Shown: positions 17,078 to 25,255 of the stretch, piece by piece | How positions within the stretch are numbered: position 1 is the first letter of the stretch | Layout of the letters: each line of letters opens with the position of its first letter | Source: a virus | IMG/VR virus record: IMGVR_UViG_3300024999_000045 | Coordinates: 1 to 64,000 of that record | Reading direction: 5' to 3' (one strand) | Length of the DNA stretch: 64,000 nucleotides | Position numbers and translations under genes: made by a program | The notes under the pieces: model-generated | The model's database searches: none | Seen by the model: only the letters and a program-made list of their open reading frames with translations | What the model was told of the DNA's origin: nothing

Positions 17078-18304
17078 ATGGGTATTTTATCAAAAATAGA
17101 TCAAATTTGTTCTTTTTGTGGCAAGTCAAGTAAAGATGTAGAGAAGATGGTAAATGGCGGAAGTGTAACAATTTGTAATGAATGTGTTGAAACTTGTGTA
17201 GATATATTAAAAGATAAAAATGTTATTACAAAATCTACTGGATATTCAAACTATTTAAAACCATTAGATATAAAAAATATATTAGATGAAACGGTTATTG
17301 GCCAAGATTATGCTAAAAAAGTGTTATCTGTAGCCGTTTATAATCATTATAAGAGGATTAATAATAAAAATAAATCAGGTGTTGATATACAAAAGTCAAA
17401 TATTATGATGTTAGGGACAACAGGTTGTGGAAAAACTCTAATTGCTCAAAGCATAGCGAAAATATTAGATGTACCCTTTACAATTGCAGATGCAAATAGC
17501 CTCACAGCTAGCGGTTATGTGGGTGAGGACGTAGAATCGATACTTACAAGACTATTACAAAATTGTGATTTCGATGTTGAAAAGGCAGAACGTGGAATTA
17601 TATTTTTAGACGAAGTGGATAAGATAGCTAAAAAAGGTGAAAATGTTTCAATTACAAGAGACGTTAGTGGTGAATGTGTTCAACAAGCATTGCTTAAAAT
17701 CATAGAAGGTTCTGTGGTGAATGTTTCACCTCAAGGTGGCAGAAAGCATCCACAACAAGAATTTATACAAGTAGACACTTCAAATATATTATTTATTGTA
17801 GGTGGAGCATTTGTAGGTATTGAAAAGATAATACAAGATAGATTAGATAAAGATAATCCAAAGAAAAATAAGAAAATAGGATTTAATACTGAAGTTATTA
17901 CAACAGAAGAGATAAAAGAAATTGATAAAGAAGAATTATTAACACATATAGCACCACAAGACTTAATAAAATTTGGGATGATACCAGAGTTTGTTGGTAG
18001 ACTTCCAGTTATAGCAACATTAAAAGCTTTAAATAAAGATGCTTTAGTAAAAATATTAACAGAACCTAAAAATTCTATAACAAATCAATATAAAGAGTTG
18101 TTTGAAATGGATAATTTAGATTTAACTTTTGAAAAAGATGCTTTGGAATCAATAGCCGATAAGGCTATTAAAAGAAATACTGGCGCTAGAGGTCTAAGGG
18201 CAATAATTGAAGAGGTAATGTTGGATTTAATGTTTGATGCACCATCAAAAAAGAAGAAGAAATATGTTATTACTAAAGAAATGGTTGAAAAAGTGGTGGC
18301 ATAG
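17078..18304 (+). CDS. clpX: ClpX ATPase (phage-encoded)
   Basis: 408 aa, near the usual 420. It has the N-terminal zinc domain ([14 protein letters not shown]... CNEC), Walker A GTTGCGKT near residue 115, the GYVGED pore loop, Walker [10 protein letters not shown], the ClpX box [10 protein letters not shown], and [10 protein letters not shown] near the C-terminus (sensor II). An IGF-like loop (KKIGFNTEV) is present, so it should dock onto host ClpP. ClpX unfolds proteins for ClpP; the zinc domain receives adaptors. A phage copy would redirect host proteolysis or act as a chaperone for replication proteins or a repressor. A phage-encoded ClpX is unusual. The gene has good ribosome sequence GAGGTGG and no own promoter visible. 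Confidence 0.95.
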
Positions 18305-18316
18305 AAAGAGGCAAAT

Positions 18317-18853
18317 ATGAGTTATTTTATTAATATAGAAGATAATAATGCATCAAAAAATTTTAATAAGTCACTAAAAAATATATTAAAAGATAAATTT
18401 AGTTTAAAATCAATAGTTATTTTAAATATTGGGACAGACAGATCAACTGGCGATTGTTTAGGGGCGTTGGTGGGATATAAATTAAAGAATTTAAAACACA
18501 ATAATATACATATTTATGGTAATTTAGATAATCCAGTACATGCTAAAAACTTAGAACAAAATATGAATATAATAAAAGAAAAACACAAAGACTCATTTGT
18601 TATTGCAATTGACGCTTCATTAAGTAGTTCAGATAACATTGGAAGAATAAATATATCGGATATTCCAATAAAACCTGGAAGTGGTGTAGGAAAAAACTTA
18701 CCAGAAGTTGGTGATATTGCTATAACGGGTGTTGTAAATACTTATGGATATAATGAATTTTTAACATTACAAAATACACGCTTAAATATTGTAATGAAAA
18801 TGGCAGATTTAATATCTTCGGGATTAATGAAAGTATTACCAAAAGTGGTTTAA
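18317..18853 (+). CDS. YyaC-like (DUF1256) protein, GPR protease fold
   Basis: 178 aa. The signature IVILNIGTDRSTGDCLGALVG matches YyaC, a sporulation-associated family related in fold to the germination protease GPR. Further family-like stretches are IYGNLDNPVHAKNL, AIDASLSSSDNIG and PGSGVGKNLPEVGD. YyaC's exact activity is not established; in hosts it belongs to spore formation. It starts 13 bases after clpX, so the two are probably one mRNA. A phage copy may tune sporulation or spore entry of phage DNA. Start ATG 18317 follows GAAAGAGGCAAAT. Confidence 0.8.
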   Translation: MSYFINIEDNNASKNFNKSLKNILKDKFSLKSIVILNIGTDRSTGDCLGALVGYKLKNLKHNNIHIYGNLDNPVHAKNLEQNMNIIKEKHKDSFVIAIDASLSSSDNIGRINISDIPIKPGSGVGKNLPEVGDIAITGVVNTYGYNEFLTLQNTRLNIVMKMADLISSGLMKVLPKVV

Positions 18854-21400: not shown

Positions 21401-21871
21401 ATGGATAAAATAATTATATACTGCGACGGATCCTGTCTTAATAATCAAAGCGAGGTAAACTTTGGAGGGTGGGGTGCAGTAATTCAATTCAAAGACCAAA
21501 TAAAAGAGATTTATGGTGGAGAAAAGAATACCACAAATCAAAGAATGGAATTGTTAAGTTGCATTAAAGCCTTAGAGTTGCTTAAATCAAATAAATACAT
21601 AGTTGAAGTATATAGTGATAGTGCTTATTTAATCAATTGTATGCAGCAAGGATGGTATAAAAAGTGGCAATCTAATGGGTGGAGAAATTCACAAAAGAAA
21701 CCAGTGGAAAATAAAGATTTGTGGGAGCAATTAATTGTGTTAATTGAGGGGTTTAATATAAATTTTAATAAAATTAAAGGCCATTCGGGGAACAATTTAA
21801 ACGAAAAAGTAGATCAATTAGCACAAAAAGGTGCATATGAGATAAAGGAGAAAGAAAATGAAAAAAATTAG
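21401..21871 (+). CDS. rnhA: Ribonuclease HI
   Basis: 156 aa. RNase HI cuts the RNA strand of RNA-DNA hybrids, removing primers and R-loops. All four acidic catalytic residues are recognisable: Asp in IYCDGSC, Glu in NQRMELLS, Asp in VYSDSAYL and Asp in NEKVDQLA. The substrate-binding part WYKKWQSNGWRNSQKKPV and the metal-proximal IKGHSGN are present. Length is typical. It heads an operon with a strong promoter, and its 3' end overlaps the first FETNSSSTHS gene by 14 bases. In the phage it would complement the primase, helicase and polymerase at 44-54 kb. Confidence 0.95.
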   Translation: MDKIIIYCDGSCLNNQSEVNFGGWGAVIQFKDQIKEIYGGEKNTTNQRMELLSCIKALELLKSNKYIVEVYSDSAYLINCMQQGWYKKWQSNGWRNSQKKPVENKDLWEQLIVLIEGFNINFNKIKGHSGNNLNEKVDQLAQKGAYEIKEKENEKN

Positions 21872-22352
21872 AAATAGTGTTTTTGAAACAAATTCAAGCA
21901 GTACGCATTCAATTTGCATTACTAAAAATAATGTATTGAATGATAAAAGAAGTGAAATTAGTTTTACAATAGGCGAATTTGGTTGGGAATGTGATACATT
22001 GTCAACTCCTTATGAAAAAGCACAATATCTTTACACTGGTGTCTTGGCAAATAACAGAGAAGAATTGATAGACCAAATCAAATCAATATTAGATAAAAAT
22101 AATATTAGTTATGATTTTCAAGAACCAGAATTTGAGACATATGGAGACGAGAATCATAAATATTTAAAAGATGGATATATTGACCACTCATGTGAATTAG
22201 GTGGATTTTTAGATATTTGCACAGATGAAAATAAATTAATGAGATATTTGTTTTCTTCAGAAAGTTTTATTATAACAGGCAATGATAATGATGATTACGA
22301 CGTGGATATTAATGTAAATTATGACCACGAAGAATACTACAAAGGAAACTAG
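21858..22352 (+). CDS. FETNSSSTHS-motif protein 1
   Basis: 164 aa. The N-terminus IRNSVFETNSSSTHSICI carries the motif shared by the three consecutive genes here. After it the sequence is unrelated: acidic, with GEFGWECDTLSTPYEKAQYL and several Asp/Asn-rich runs. The ATG lies inside the end of the RNase H gene, so translation is coupled. The motif resembles an N-terminal tag (Phe-Glu-Thr-Asn-Ser-Ser-Ser-Thr-His-Ser) that I remember in hypothetical phage proteins. No assigned function. The neighbouring radical SAM enzyme makes a modification hypothesis reasonable. Confidence 0.7.
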   Translation: MKKIRNSVFETNSSSTHSICITKNNVLNDKRSEISFTIGEFGWECDTLSTPYEKAQYLYTGVLANNREELIDQIKSILDKNNISYDFQEPEFETYGDENHKYLKDGYIDHSCELGGFLDICTDENKLMRYLFSSESFIITGNDNDDYDVDINVNYDHEEYYKGN

Positions 22353-22364
22353 GAGGATTTAAAA

Positions 22365-22655
22365 ATGAGAACAATAAGAAGAGGCGTTTTTGAAACAAAC
22401 AGTAGTTCAACACACAGTATTAGCATCGTATCAAAAGAAGAATTTGATAAATGGAAGAATGGCGAATTGTTATATGACAGGTATGAAAAATTATTTTTAA
22501 CAAAAGATGAATCACAGGAACTCGAAGACCAAGATGATTTAAATACATATGACGAATATTTTGATGATGGGTGTTTAGAAGGTTTTACAAAAAAACACAC
22601 TACAAAGAGTGGTGATGAAATAATTGCTTTTGGTAAATATGGATATGATGGTTAG
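22365..22655 (+). CDS. FETNSSSTHS-motif protein 2
   Basis: 96 aa, the shortest of the three. It starts IRRGVFETNSSSTHSISIV and then is acidic and helical (FLTKDESQELEDQDDLNTY), ending in KYGYDG. It starts 12 bases after the previous stop with AGGAGG. Variable remainder and constant N-terminus suggest that the motif does a common job for different cargo domains. Confidence 0.7.
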   Translation: MRTIRRGVFETNSSSTHSISIVSKEEFDKWKNGELLYDRYEKLFLTKDESQELEDQDDLNTYDEYFDDGCLEGFTKKHTTKSGDEIIAFGKYGYDG

Positions 22656-22700
22656 TGATAATTAATAATTATATTCTACATAATATAAGGAGAGATTAAA

Positions 22701-23234
22701 ATGATAAAAATAAGAAGATGTGTATTTGAGACAAATAGCAGCTCAACCCACAGTATAAGTATTTATAAATGGACGCCAGTGAAAGAAAGTAAAATCCCTA
22801 AAAATAAATCAATTGAGGTTAAAGGTGGAGTACCACCACAAACTGAAATAAAAGATGAATTAGGTAAATTAAAATATATTATATGTATATTAGCATCATT
22901 AGAAGAAAATATTCAGAATAGACAAGGTGAAGATTATATTTATGGAGTAGATTGTTGTTCGTACAAAGATGGATATAAATATTTTGAAATAATGATTAAT
23001 AGTAATCGTTTTAAATGGCTTAAAGAAATAATAAAAGAAAAATGTAATACAGATATAAAATATATTACTACCGATGATTGTTTTCCTTACTATGAAACTG
23101 TGTATAATGATGGTAGTTCATTAGAAAGTATATTAGCATGTGATATAAACGACGAGCAGTCATTCAAAGAAAGAATTTCTGAAATTATATTTGAAGATAA
23201 TTATGTTATAGAGGATAAGGAGAATGAATATTAA
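22701..23234 (+). CDS. FETNSSSTHS-motif protein 3
   Basis: 177 aa. It begins IRRCVFETNSSSTHSISIY. The rest is acidic alpha/beta (LKYIICILASLEENIQNR, then VDCCSYKDGYKYFEIMINS). Its stop codon shares its last base with the ATG of the radical SAM gene, strong evidence of joint translation. ATG follows AAGGAGAGATTAAA. The three genes probably arose by duplication of the 5' part with replacement of the 3' part. Confidence 0.7.
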   Translation: MIKIRRCVFETNSSSTHSISIYKWTPVKESKIPKNKSIEVKGGVPPQTEIKDELGKLKYIICILASLEENIQNRQGEDYIYGVDCCSYKDGYKYFEIMINSNRFKWLKEIIKEKCNTDIKYITTDDCFPYYETVYNDGSSLESILACDINDEQSFKERISEIIFEDNYVIEDKENEY

Positions 23235-24118
23235 TGGATATTAAATTATTAGGGTCATATAACAACGGAAATTATACCGTGGAAATATATAATGATGGGA
23301 CAAAAATTAGGGAAACAGACGATGATAGTTTTATATCGTCTTTCCCAGAATGCATTGATTTAAAAATAACTAATTATTGTGATATGGGGTGTCCTTATTG
23401 CCATGAAAATTCAACTAAAGACGGTAAACATGGAGATATACTCAATACCGAATTTATTAATACATTACAACCATATACCGAATTAGCAATTGGAGGTGGG
23501 AATCCATTAGACCACCCTGATTTAATTGAATTTTTACATAAATTAAAAGAAAAAAATATAATTGCAAACATAACAGTAAATCAAAATCATTTTATGAAAT
23601 ATGAATCTATTATTTTAGATATGGTAAATAAAGAATTAATTAAAGGTTTGGGAATTTCTTTAACAAATGCAAATGATATTCATTTTATTGCAAGACTAAA
23701 AGAGTATCCAAATGCAGTTTTACATGTTATTAATGGGATTATTGGCCTTAAAGACTTAGAAAAATTATATGGTTATGGCTTTAAAATATTAATATTAGGT
23801 TATAAACAAATTAGAAGGGGTATAGAATATTATTCAGACCAAGTAGAAACAAATAAAAAGGTTATTTTTGATAATATTAGTGACATTATTAATGGATTTA
23901 AGGTTGTAAGCTTCGACAATTTGGCAATTAGACAATTAGAATTAAGAAGAATTTTCACAGATAAAGATTGGAATGAATTTTTTATGGGTGATGATGGTCA
24001 ATTTACAATGTATATTGATTTAGTTGAGGAAAAATTTGCATTAAGCTCTACAACATTAGAAAGACATGATGTAAAAGATAATATTATTGATATGTTTAAT
24101 ATTGTAAAGTCTAAATAA
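23234..24118 (+). CDS. Radical SAM enzyme next to the FETNSSSTHS genes
   Basis: 294 aa. The CxxxCxxC iron-sulfur cluster motif is at C49/C53/C56 (YCDMGCPYC), followed by a TIM-barrel-like layout: ELAIGGGNPLDHPDLIEFL carries the GGG-type SAM-binding loop, then ANITVNQNH and LGISLTNANDI. Radical SAM enzymes use S-adenosylmethionine radicals to modify peptides, nucleotides or RNA. There is no C-terminal SPASM Cys cluster that I can see, so it is a compact core enzyme. The one-base overlap with the third FETNSSSTHS gene suggests a functional connection. The substrate is not deducible; peptide modification and nucleotide modification are both possible. Confidence 0.8.
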   Translation: MDIKLLGSYNNGNYTVEIYNDGTKIRETDDDSFISSFPECIDLKITNYCDMGCPYCHENSTKDGKHGDILNTEFINTLQPYTELAIGGGNPLDHPDLIEFLHKLKEKNIIANITVNQNHFMKYESIILDMVNKELIKGLGISLTNANDIHFIARLKEYPNAVLHVINGIIGLKDLEKLYGYGFKILILGYKQIRRGIEYYSDQVETNKKVIFDNISDIINGFKVVSFDNLAIRQLELRRIFTDKDWNEFFMGDDGQFTMYIDLVEEKFALSSTTLERHDVKDNIIDMFNIVKSK

Positions 24119-24166: not shown

Positions 24167-25255
24167 ATGAGAAAATTAGCGTCAATACAAAAAATAATTG
24201 CATTAAACCCAATAGAAAAAGCTGATGCAATAGAAGTTTGTACAGTATTAGGTTGGGAATGCGTTGTAGCAAAAAAAGATAATTTTAAAGTTGGAGATTT
24301 AGTTTGTTATATTGAAGTAGATAGTATAGTGCCTGATAGATTAGAATTTGAATTTTTAAGAGATAGAAAATTTAGGGTTAAAACTATAAAATTAAGAGGT
24401 CAAGTAAGCCAAGGGTTAGTATTACCATTATCTATATTACCAAAAGGAAATTATAAAGAAAATGAAGATATAACAGAAATTCTTGGTGTTAAGAAACATG
24501 ACCCACAAGCTGATGCAGAGAGAAAATCAATAGAAGAAAAATTAGCCACAAGTAACAATCGTGTTCATAAATTTTTTGCAAAATACTCATGGTATAGAAA
24601 TATATTTTTTAAACCAAAGAAAAGCAATTTTCCTAAATTTATAAAGAAAACAGACGAGGATAGAATTCAATTATTCCCACATATTTGTGAAAATGAAAAA
24701 GATACAGTATTTAGTGTAACTGAAAAATTAGATGGTCAAAGTGGAACATACTTTTTAATTAAGAACCCTAGAAGGTTTTTGTTTGGTAAAAAATATATAT
24801 TTGGTGTTTGTAGTAGAAATATTCATTTAACTAAAGAAGATAATAGTTCTTATTGGACTATAGCTAGACAATATAATATTGAAAAAGTTTTAAATAATTT
24901 AATTGAAAATAACCAATTTATAGTTTTACAAGGAGAAATTTTAGGAACTGGAATTCAAGGTAATAAATATAAGGTTGATGGATATGATTTCTATGCTTTT
25001 AACTTAATATATCCTAATAAACAAATTAGCAGCATAGCTGCAAAGTTGTTATTAGAGGGATTTGAAATTAAATTTGTACCTATATTAGAAACTGGATTTA
25101 AATTAAAAGAAACAATAAAAGATATGGTTGAATACGCTAAAGGTAATTCTACTTTATTGCCAGTATTAAGAGAAGGTGTTGTAATAAGAAATTATAATAA
25201 AAATACTAGTTTTAAAGTAATAAATCCTGACTTTTTACTAAAAAATGAAGAATAA
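24167..25255 (+). CDS. RNA ligase (DRB0094/Rnl5-like, N-terminal OB fold)
   Basis: 362 aa. RNA ligases seal RNA ends through an enzyme-AMP intermediate. The N-terminal part (about 1-115) resembles the OB module of DRB0094-type ligases (NFKVGDLVCYIEVDSIVPD, then IKLRGQVSQGLVLPL). The nucleotidyltransferase part follows: motif I EKLDGQSGTYF with the adenylated Lys, FGVCSRN, VLQGEILGTGIQ, REGVVIRN and SFKVIN with the late Lys. All five ligase motifs are recognisable. In phages such enzymes repair tRNA or RNA cut by host defence. It follows the radical SAM gene with a ribosome site AAAGGAGACAAAT. Confidence 0.88.
   Translation: MRKLASIQKIIALNPIEKADAIEVCTVLGWECVVAKKDNFKVGDLVCYIEVDSIVPDRLEFEFLRDRKFRVKTIKLRGQVSQGLVLPLSILPKGNYKENEDITEILGVKKHDPQADAERKSIEEKLATSNNRVHKFFAKYSWYRNIFFKPKKSNFPKFIKKTDEDRIQLFPHICENEKDTVFSVTEKLDGQSGTYFLIKNPRRFLFGKKYIFGVCSRNIHLTKEDNSSYWTIARQYNIEKVLNNLIENNQFIVLQGEILGTGIQGNKYKVDGYDFYAFNLIYPNKQISSIAAKLLLEGFEIKFVPILETGFKLKETIKDMVEYAKGNSTLLPVLREGVVIRNYNKNTSFKVINPDFLLKNEE

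What the first reader, a model, noticed from the sequence alone, without database searches (positions are those of the whole stretch)
21858..24118. Three proteins with an invariant FETNSSSTHS N-terminus joined to a radical SAM enzyme
Seen: three consecutive genes share an N-terminal block (IRxxVFETNSSSTHSIxI) and then diverge completely in sequence and length (164, 96, 177 aa). The third overlaps the radical SAM gene by one base. Known: radical SAM enzymes often modify peptides encoded beside them. Inferred: the common Ser/Thr/His-rich block may be a recognition tag or a modification site, so this could be an undescribed phage peptide/protein-modifying system with exchangeable cargo. Alternatively the motif is a localisation or assembly tag and the radical SAM enzyme serves another substrate.
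Basis: partly seen in the sequence, partly recalled or inferred. Interest (0 to 1): 0.72.

Follow-up and report, generated by a model that had tools for sequence, protein, structure and literature searches.

The report
Phage tag proteins with matching enzyme
Hundreds of phages carry a radical SAM enzyme together with small proteins that all begin with the same short sequence (FETNSSSxH), and a second family of this enzyme pairs just as strictly with a second version of the tag, so this looks like an undescribed way for phages to chemically mature a set of their own proteins.

Summary
Three consecutive genes (21858-22352, 22365-22655, 22701-23234) begin with IRxxVFETNSSSTHS, and a radical SAM gene (23234-24118) follows with a one-base overlap. 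The link between tag and enzyme is far above chance. In 50 motif-bearing phage records, 37 have a radical SAM gene within 1.7 kb downstream on the same strand (1.35 expected, maximum 8 in 20,000 simulations). Of 135 loci found through the enzyme alone, 127 carry the tag. The enzyme is one tight family with a C-terminal half that is homologous to SPASM but has lost its cluster ligands. A sister family that keeps the SPASM cysteines pairs with a sister tag, KIRx(G/D)FV(S/T)NSSSSSF. Across all fetched loci the pairing is 218:0 and 116:0, and one phage carries both systems side by side. No other gene is conserved around the module. Models of two tag proteins put the tag at a low-confidence N-terminal tail of otherwise confident domains with no PDB fold match. 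In three distant relatives the class A tag domain is fused to the enzyme. Best reading: a SPASM-derived maturase that recognises, and probably modifies, the N-terminal T-N-S-S-S tail. The chemistry and the phage benefit are unknown. E. coli phage RB43 carries the sister system and makes the idea testable.

The parts
21858..22352 (+). Tag protein 1 (164 aa), class A body (GEFGWE, KASYLYT, YIDH, TGNDN)
   Evidence: PHROG 28997 (unknown function) E 1.7e-31; AF2 model pLDDT 92
21882..21911 (+). FETNSSSTHS codons of protein 1
22365..22655 (+). Tag protein 2 (96 aa), class B body (ends FGKYGYDG)
   Evidence: AF2 model pLDDT 87.5
22389..22418 (+). FETNSSSTHS codons of protein 2
22701..23234 (+). Tag protein 3 (177 aa), diverged class A-linked body
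22725..22754 (+). FETNSSSTHS codons of protein 3
23234..24118 (+). Radical SAM protein (294 aa), clusterless SPASM-derived family A1; overlaps protein 3 by one base
   Evidence: PF04055 39.1 bits; PHROG 16999 'Fe-S oxidoreductase' 4e-55; alignment A1
23378..23401 (+). CDMGCPYC, the CxxxCxxC ligands of the radical SAM cluster (C49, C53, C56)
   Evidence: invariant columns of A1

Best explanation
The three tag proteins and the radical SAM enzyme form a self-contained phage protein-maturation module. Shown by sequence: the enzyme family and the N-terminal tag are obligate genomic partners, and two sister enzyme types pair strictly with two sister tag types. Inferred: the enzyme recognises the low-confidence N-terminal tail (K/R-x-I-R-x-x-V-F-E-T-N-S-S-S-x-H) and uses the 5'-deoxyadenosyl radical to change one residue of the invariant [TS]-N-S-S core, after which the small folded body becomes active or stable. 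Class A is the core client: it can be the only partner and can be fused to the enzyme. The family studied here has lost the SPASM cluster ligands, so an oxidative reaction that needs an auxiliary cluster (formylglycine, thioether) is less likely than a redox-neutral or hydrogen-transfer reaction. The product, and what the phage gains, are unknown.
For: Association from the motif: radical SAM gene 1.7 kb or less downstream on the same strand in 37 of 50 records (positions) against 1.35 expected and at most 8 in 20,000 simulations. Association from the enzyme: 127 of 135 loci carry the tag, five of the eight others being cut by a contig end beside the enzyme. Specificity: 234 clusterless enzymes, 218 next to FETNSSSxH and 0 next to FV[ST]NSSSSSF; 119 SPASM enzymes, 116 next to FV[ST]NSSSSSF and 0 next to FETNSSSxH. 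One 159-kb phage carries both enzymes 9 kb apart, each by its own tag genes. Conservation: R(-4), E, N, S, S and H are 99% conserved over 344 heads, while mean column identity over class A is 20%. Models: tail at low confidence, body confident. The enzyme is homologous to SPASM-type enzymes (hhalign 99.3%), and the sister profile's best PDB hit is the peptide maturase SkfB (2.8e-8). No third gene is conserved over 232 loci.
Against: No modification has been observed; everything is genomic and structural inference. In Salmonella phage Arash, Deferribacter pDF308 and Methylobacterium pVL1_2 the class A domain is fused to the enzyme and is the only such tag found in the record, which also fits a partner-subunit role. 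Nine motif stretches lie in records without the enzyme (mostly short fragments, but one of 122 kb and one of 597 kb, the latter at a contig end). In the sister superfamily 5 of 28 records of at least 100 kb lack a strong match. Low pLDDT at a terminus can also mean a missing partner rather than exposure.
Confidence: 0.68

Rival explanations
1. The tag proteins are interchangeable partner or adaptor subunits: the N-terminal tail docks them on the radical SAM enzyme, and the complex acts on another substrate such as a host protein or nucleotide.
For: Class A domain fused to the enzyme in three distant relatives, with no other tag of this type found in those records; class A has its own conserved polar residues D109, H110, D143; several diverse bodies per enzyme.
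Against: The most conserved stretch is a short polar N-terminal segment rather than the body; the sister enzymes carry SPASM, a domain best known from enzymes that act on peptides and proteins (established knowledge); up to 10 tag genes in one locus is many for adaptors.
Confidence: 0.2
2. The tag is a localisation, assembly or degradation signal read by another phage or host factor; the radical SAM enzyme is merely co-inherited.
For: Tag is N-terminal and low-confidence in the models; unrelated bodies share it.
Against: 127 of 135 enzyme-found loci carry the tag; strict pairing of enzyme type with tag type; both systems kept separate in one phage.
Confidence: 0.07
3. Phage-borne RiPP pathway in which the tag proteins are precursors and the modified peptide is cut off and exported.
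For: Radical SAM enzyme next to small proteins with a common N-terminal block, like leader peptides.
Against: No conserved protease, transporter or third gene; bodies are confidently folded domains of roughly 80-320 aa.
Confidence: 0.04

Closest known systems
Radical SAM/SPASM peptide maturases (SkfB, SuiB, PqqE, mycofactocin maturase MftC, WgkB)
   Same: Radical SAM core; the sister family A4 has PF13186 SPASM hits and hits SkfB (2.8e-8), SuiB and PqqE in the PDB; enzyme gene beside genes with a conserved N-terminal block.
   Different: The A1 family lacks the SPASM cysteines; partners are several folded proteins with an N-terminal tag, not one short precursor; no RiPP accessory genes.
Anaerobic sulfatase-maturating enzymes (anSME/AtsB)
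   Same: A radical SAM enzyme that acts on a short motif (including Ser) within a folded protein, described from established knowledge.
   Different: anSME reads C/S-x-A/P-x-R and needs auxiliary clusters; here the motif is T-N-S-S-S and the auxiliary ligands are lost.
Prokaryotic viperins (pVip)
   Same: Small radical SAM enzyme in a phage context; weak profile match, 26.9 bits and 21.6 bits.
   Different: Far below the NCBIfam viperin cut-off of 180; always beside tag proteins.
PHROG 16999 (Fe-S oxidoreductase) and PHROG 28997 (unknown function)
   Same: These hold the enzyme and the class A protein of the window; Microcystis phage LMM01 gp128 and gp130 are members by similarity.
   Different: No recorded link between the two families; 45 of 81 class B members also match PHROG 28997, and in the window's protein 2 this match covers only residues 4-24.

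Membership tests
Radical SAM superfamily | PF04055 above its cut-off and CxxxCxxC | tested here: met
   39.1 bits against 29.5; C49, C53, C56 invariant in 58 sequences
Radical SAM/SPASM maturases | SPASM domain with auxiliary-cluster cysteines | tested here: not met
   No PF13186 hit for the window enzyme; hhalign puts L230, G252, S271 opposite C251, C273, C291 of A4, and the region of C333 is not aligned
Radical SAM/SPASM maturases | Homology over the whole length to SPASM-bearing enzymes | tested here: met
   A1 against A4: probability 99.3, 282 columns including the C-terminal part
RiPP pathway | Short precursor plus conserved accessory genes (RRE, protease, exporter) | tested here: not met
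   No gene family recurs in more than 13 of 232 loci apart from tag proteins and enzyme; partners are folded. RRE domains were not searched for separately
anSME | C/S-x-A/P-x-R substrate motif | tested here: not met
   Head logo shows FETNSSSxH
Glycyl-radical enzyme activases | Partner protein with a conserved glycine radical site | tested here: not met
   No glycine in the conserved motif core
Prokaryotic viperin | Score above the NCBIfam viperin cut-off | tested here: not met
   21.6 bits against 180
Radical SAM protein-modifying enzyme | Chemical change on the partner protein | not testable with these tools
   Needs expression and mass spectrometry

The most novel reading that the evidence does not exclude
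A clusterless, SPASM-derived enzyme installs a modification not known from SPASM chemistry on an N-terminal T-N-S-S-S tail, creating the working residue of a phage protein family with a new fold. The same logic, with a SPASM enzyme and the sister tag FV[ST]NSSSSSF, is used by many other phages, including T4-like coliphages RB43 and RB16: one general protein-maturation code of mobile elements.
Probability: 0.3. Interest if true: 0.92.

Novelty: new variant of a known kind. Interest (0 to 1): 0.8.

Why it matters
If true, a very common set of uncharacterised phage genes (tag families annotated as hypothetical, in gut, rumen, cyanobacterial and enterobacterial phages and in Lak megaphages) gets a common biochemical explanation, and a radical SAM enzyme gets a readable substrate code. 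The two cognate enzyme-tag pairs, one with and one without SPASM cluster ligands, would make the role of auxiliary clusters directly testable. RB43 and RB16 in E. coli offer a standard laboratory host.

Tried and rejected
Chance similarity of the three N-termini: rejected, the motif recurs in more than 119 stretches of IMG/VR at the N-terminus of proteins. Motif widespread without the enzyme: largely rejected for FETNSSSxH. A missing third component: none found. Known fold: Foldseek against PDB gave nothing at E <= 0.001 for either class; PDB sequence profiles gave nothing convincing. Defence-system membership: no PADLOC hit for the tag proteins, only weak viperin similarity for the enzyme. 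Literature: no paper in the held library contains TNSSSTHS, SNSSSSSF or related strings; searches for phage radical SAM modification, LMM01, Arash and RB43 found nothing relevant. A profile comparison of class A with class B failed in the tool, so their common ancestry is undecided. A search of 196 genomes of the class of G051 for FV[ST]NSSSSSF gave three hits, one of them (L269) with an adjacent radical SAM gene.

Full report
WHAT IS THERE. Four tandem genes on the + strand: tag protein 1 (21858-22352, 164 aa), tag protein 2 (22365-22655, 96 aa), tag protein 3 (22701-23234, 177 aa) and a radical SAM protein (23234-24118, 294 aa). Upstream is an RNase H gene that overlaps tag protein 1 by 14 bases; downstream is an RNA ligase. 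The record is a 130,449-base virus contig and holds the motif only here. The window looks like a replication and metabolism region: DNA polymerase, DnaB-like helicase, ribonucleotide reductase.

HOW WIDESPREAD. In nearly all, the motif sits at the very N-terminus: the start codon is 8 or 9 residues before the F in 321 of 367 distinct proteins. The bodies fall into two large families, A (187) and B (113), and many small ones. The window's proteins 1 and 3 join A (3 only through intermediates) and protein 2 is B.

ASSOCIATION, FROM THE MOTIF. Positions of PF04055 and of the motif in 50 records put a radical SAM gene at most 1.7 kb downstream on the same strand in 37 (my count from the two tables); random placement gives 1.35, maximum 8 in 20,000 runs. 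With a profile of the window's enzyme, 89 of 120 fetched stretches hold this one family, 80 of them 0-1.7 kb downstream of a motif gene. Of the 31 others, 22 lie in records that carry the enzyme elsewhere; the 9 left are mostly fragments.

ASSOCIATION, FROM THE ENZYME. Scans with the enzyme alignment A1 used a C-terminal peptide pattern and not the motif. Of 135 loci, 127 carry the tag on the same strand, nearly all within about 3 kb. Of the eight without, five are cut at a contig end beside the enzyme (L154, L173, L176, L177, L253); L221 lies in a record that has the motif 28 kb away; L142 and L211 are from short contigs. Loci come from many Firmicutes MAGs and isolates, archaeal MAGs and viral contigs. 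Named phages with both parts: Microcystis phage LMM01 and relatives, and the Lak megaphages, where the enzyme is followed by four tag genes.

A SECOND, MATCHING SYSTEM. Distant relatives of the enzyme are also accompanied by or fused to N-terminal [ST]-N-S-S-S proteins. Fused: Arash gp146c, Deferribacter DEFDS_RS11685, Methylobacterium miv_RS31505. Beside or near the enzyme: RM378 gp106, Thermus phage YS40_162, and a 131-aa protein on Agrobacterium, Rhizobium and Rhodobacter plasmids and in a clostridial genome. The class A profile matches the fused N-terminal domains at 1e-8 to 1e-10. Scans for KIRxGFV[ST]NSSSSSF and the DFV version found 232 further stretches, often tandem arrays of up to 10 genes; 113 of 224 of these, often short, loci hold a sister radical SAM enzyme. 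For 50 records whose fetched stretch mostly lacked one, 31 have a strong match elsewhere, and 23 of the 28 records of at least 100 kb (my count). Typing every enzyme by profile gives complete pairing: clusterless with FETNSSSxH 218, with the other tag 0; SPASM type with FV[ST]NSSSSSF 116, with the other tag 0. The loci were found partly through the motifs, so the totals are not independent samples, but no cross-pairing was seen. One 159-kb phage has both enzymes 9 kb apart. E. coli phages RB43 and RB16 carry the sister tag; RB43 ORF116c and ORF121c are tag proteins and ORF169c is the enzyme.

THE ENZYME. A1 is a single family (58 sequences, 31-70% identical to the window's). Its C-terminal half aligns with the SPASM part of the sister family A4 (hhalign 99.3%), but the invariant ligands C251, C273 and C291 of A4 are L230, G252 and S271 here and the region of C333 has no counterpart. 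A4-type enzymes have PF13186 hits and match SkfB, SuiB, BtrN and PqqE in the PDB. No NCBIfam model reaches its cut-off for the window's enzyme.

THE TAG. AlphaFold2 on deep alignments gives confident bodies (mean pLDDT 92 and 87.5). Residues 1-10 average 51 and 58, and no secondary structure is assigned before residue 15. The most conserved stretch of the family is thus the least confidently structured part, which fits a recognition or modification site. Neither body has a PDB fold match.

MECHANISM. Shown: obligate and type-specific genomic partnership, N-terminal position, SPASM ancestry, loss of auxiliary ligands, absence of any other conserved gene. Inferred: the enzyme binds the tail and modifies a residue in [TS]-N-S-S, the part common to both tag types. 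The fusions suggest that class A plus enzyme is the minimal unit, so the modification probably serves the body's own activity rather than labelling arbitrary cargo. The partner-subunit model remains the main rival.

KNOWN OR NEW. No Pfam or PADLOC family covers the window's tag proteins (NCBIfam was run on the enzymes only) and no held paper mentions the motif. PHROGs list both parts separately, as 'Fe-S oxidoreductase' and 'unknown function'. It works like a radical SAM peptide or protein maturase; membership of SPASM, RiPP, anSME or viperin families fails on tested defining features.

Noticed in passing
L502 (Escherichia phage RB43): 4446-4913, 8363-8845, 28837-29859, all - strand: RB43 carries the sister system: ORF116c and ORF121c start MKIRSGFVSNSSSSSF and ORF169c (annotated hypothetical) is a radical SAM/SPASM protein; the overlapping ORF168c holds further SPASM-like cysteines, so the gene may be split or frameshifted.
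   Followed up: partly
L260:3491-4921, L261:3341-4888, L262:3539-4864: Single proteins in Salmonella phage Arash, a Deferribacter megaplasmid and a Methylobacterium plasmid fuse the class A tag domain to the radical SAM enzyme.
   Followed up: yes
L269:95-1548 and L263:3560-4993: A clostridial genome and Agrobacterium-type plasmids hold a 131-aa DFV[ST]NSSSTSF protein directly before a radical SAM/SPASM gene: a cellular or plasmid version of the module.
   Followed up: partly
L175:5001-5884 (Breznakiella homolactica chromosome): The enzyme gene is split in two adjacent frames, which suggests a frameshift in a chromosomal, possibly proviral, copy.
   Followed up: no
window 24167-25255: An RNA ligase with a PHA02142 OB-fold follows the module; its family recurs near the module in 10 of 232 loci, always on the same strand.
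   Followed up: partly
window 17078-18853: A ClpX-like ATPase (408 aa) and a spore-protease-like protein (PHROG 8268) lie a few genes upstream, unusual for a phage.
   Followed up: no
C-termini of class B and of RB43 ORF116c: Proteins of both tag systems can end in a short ...GYDG motif (class B FGKYGYDG, RB43 ORF116c GGGYDG), which may mean a shared C-terminal strand or second signal.
   Followed up: no
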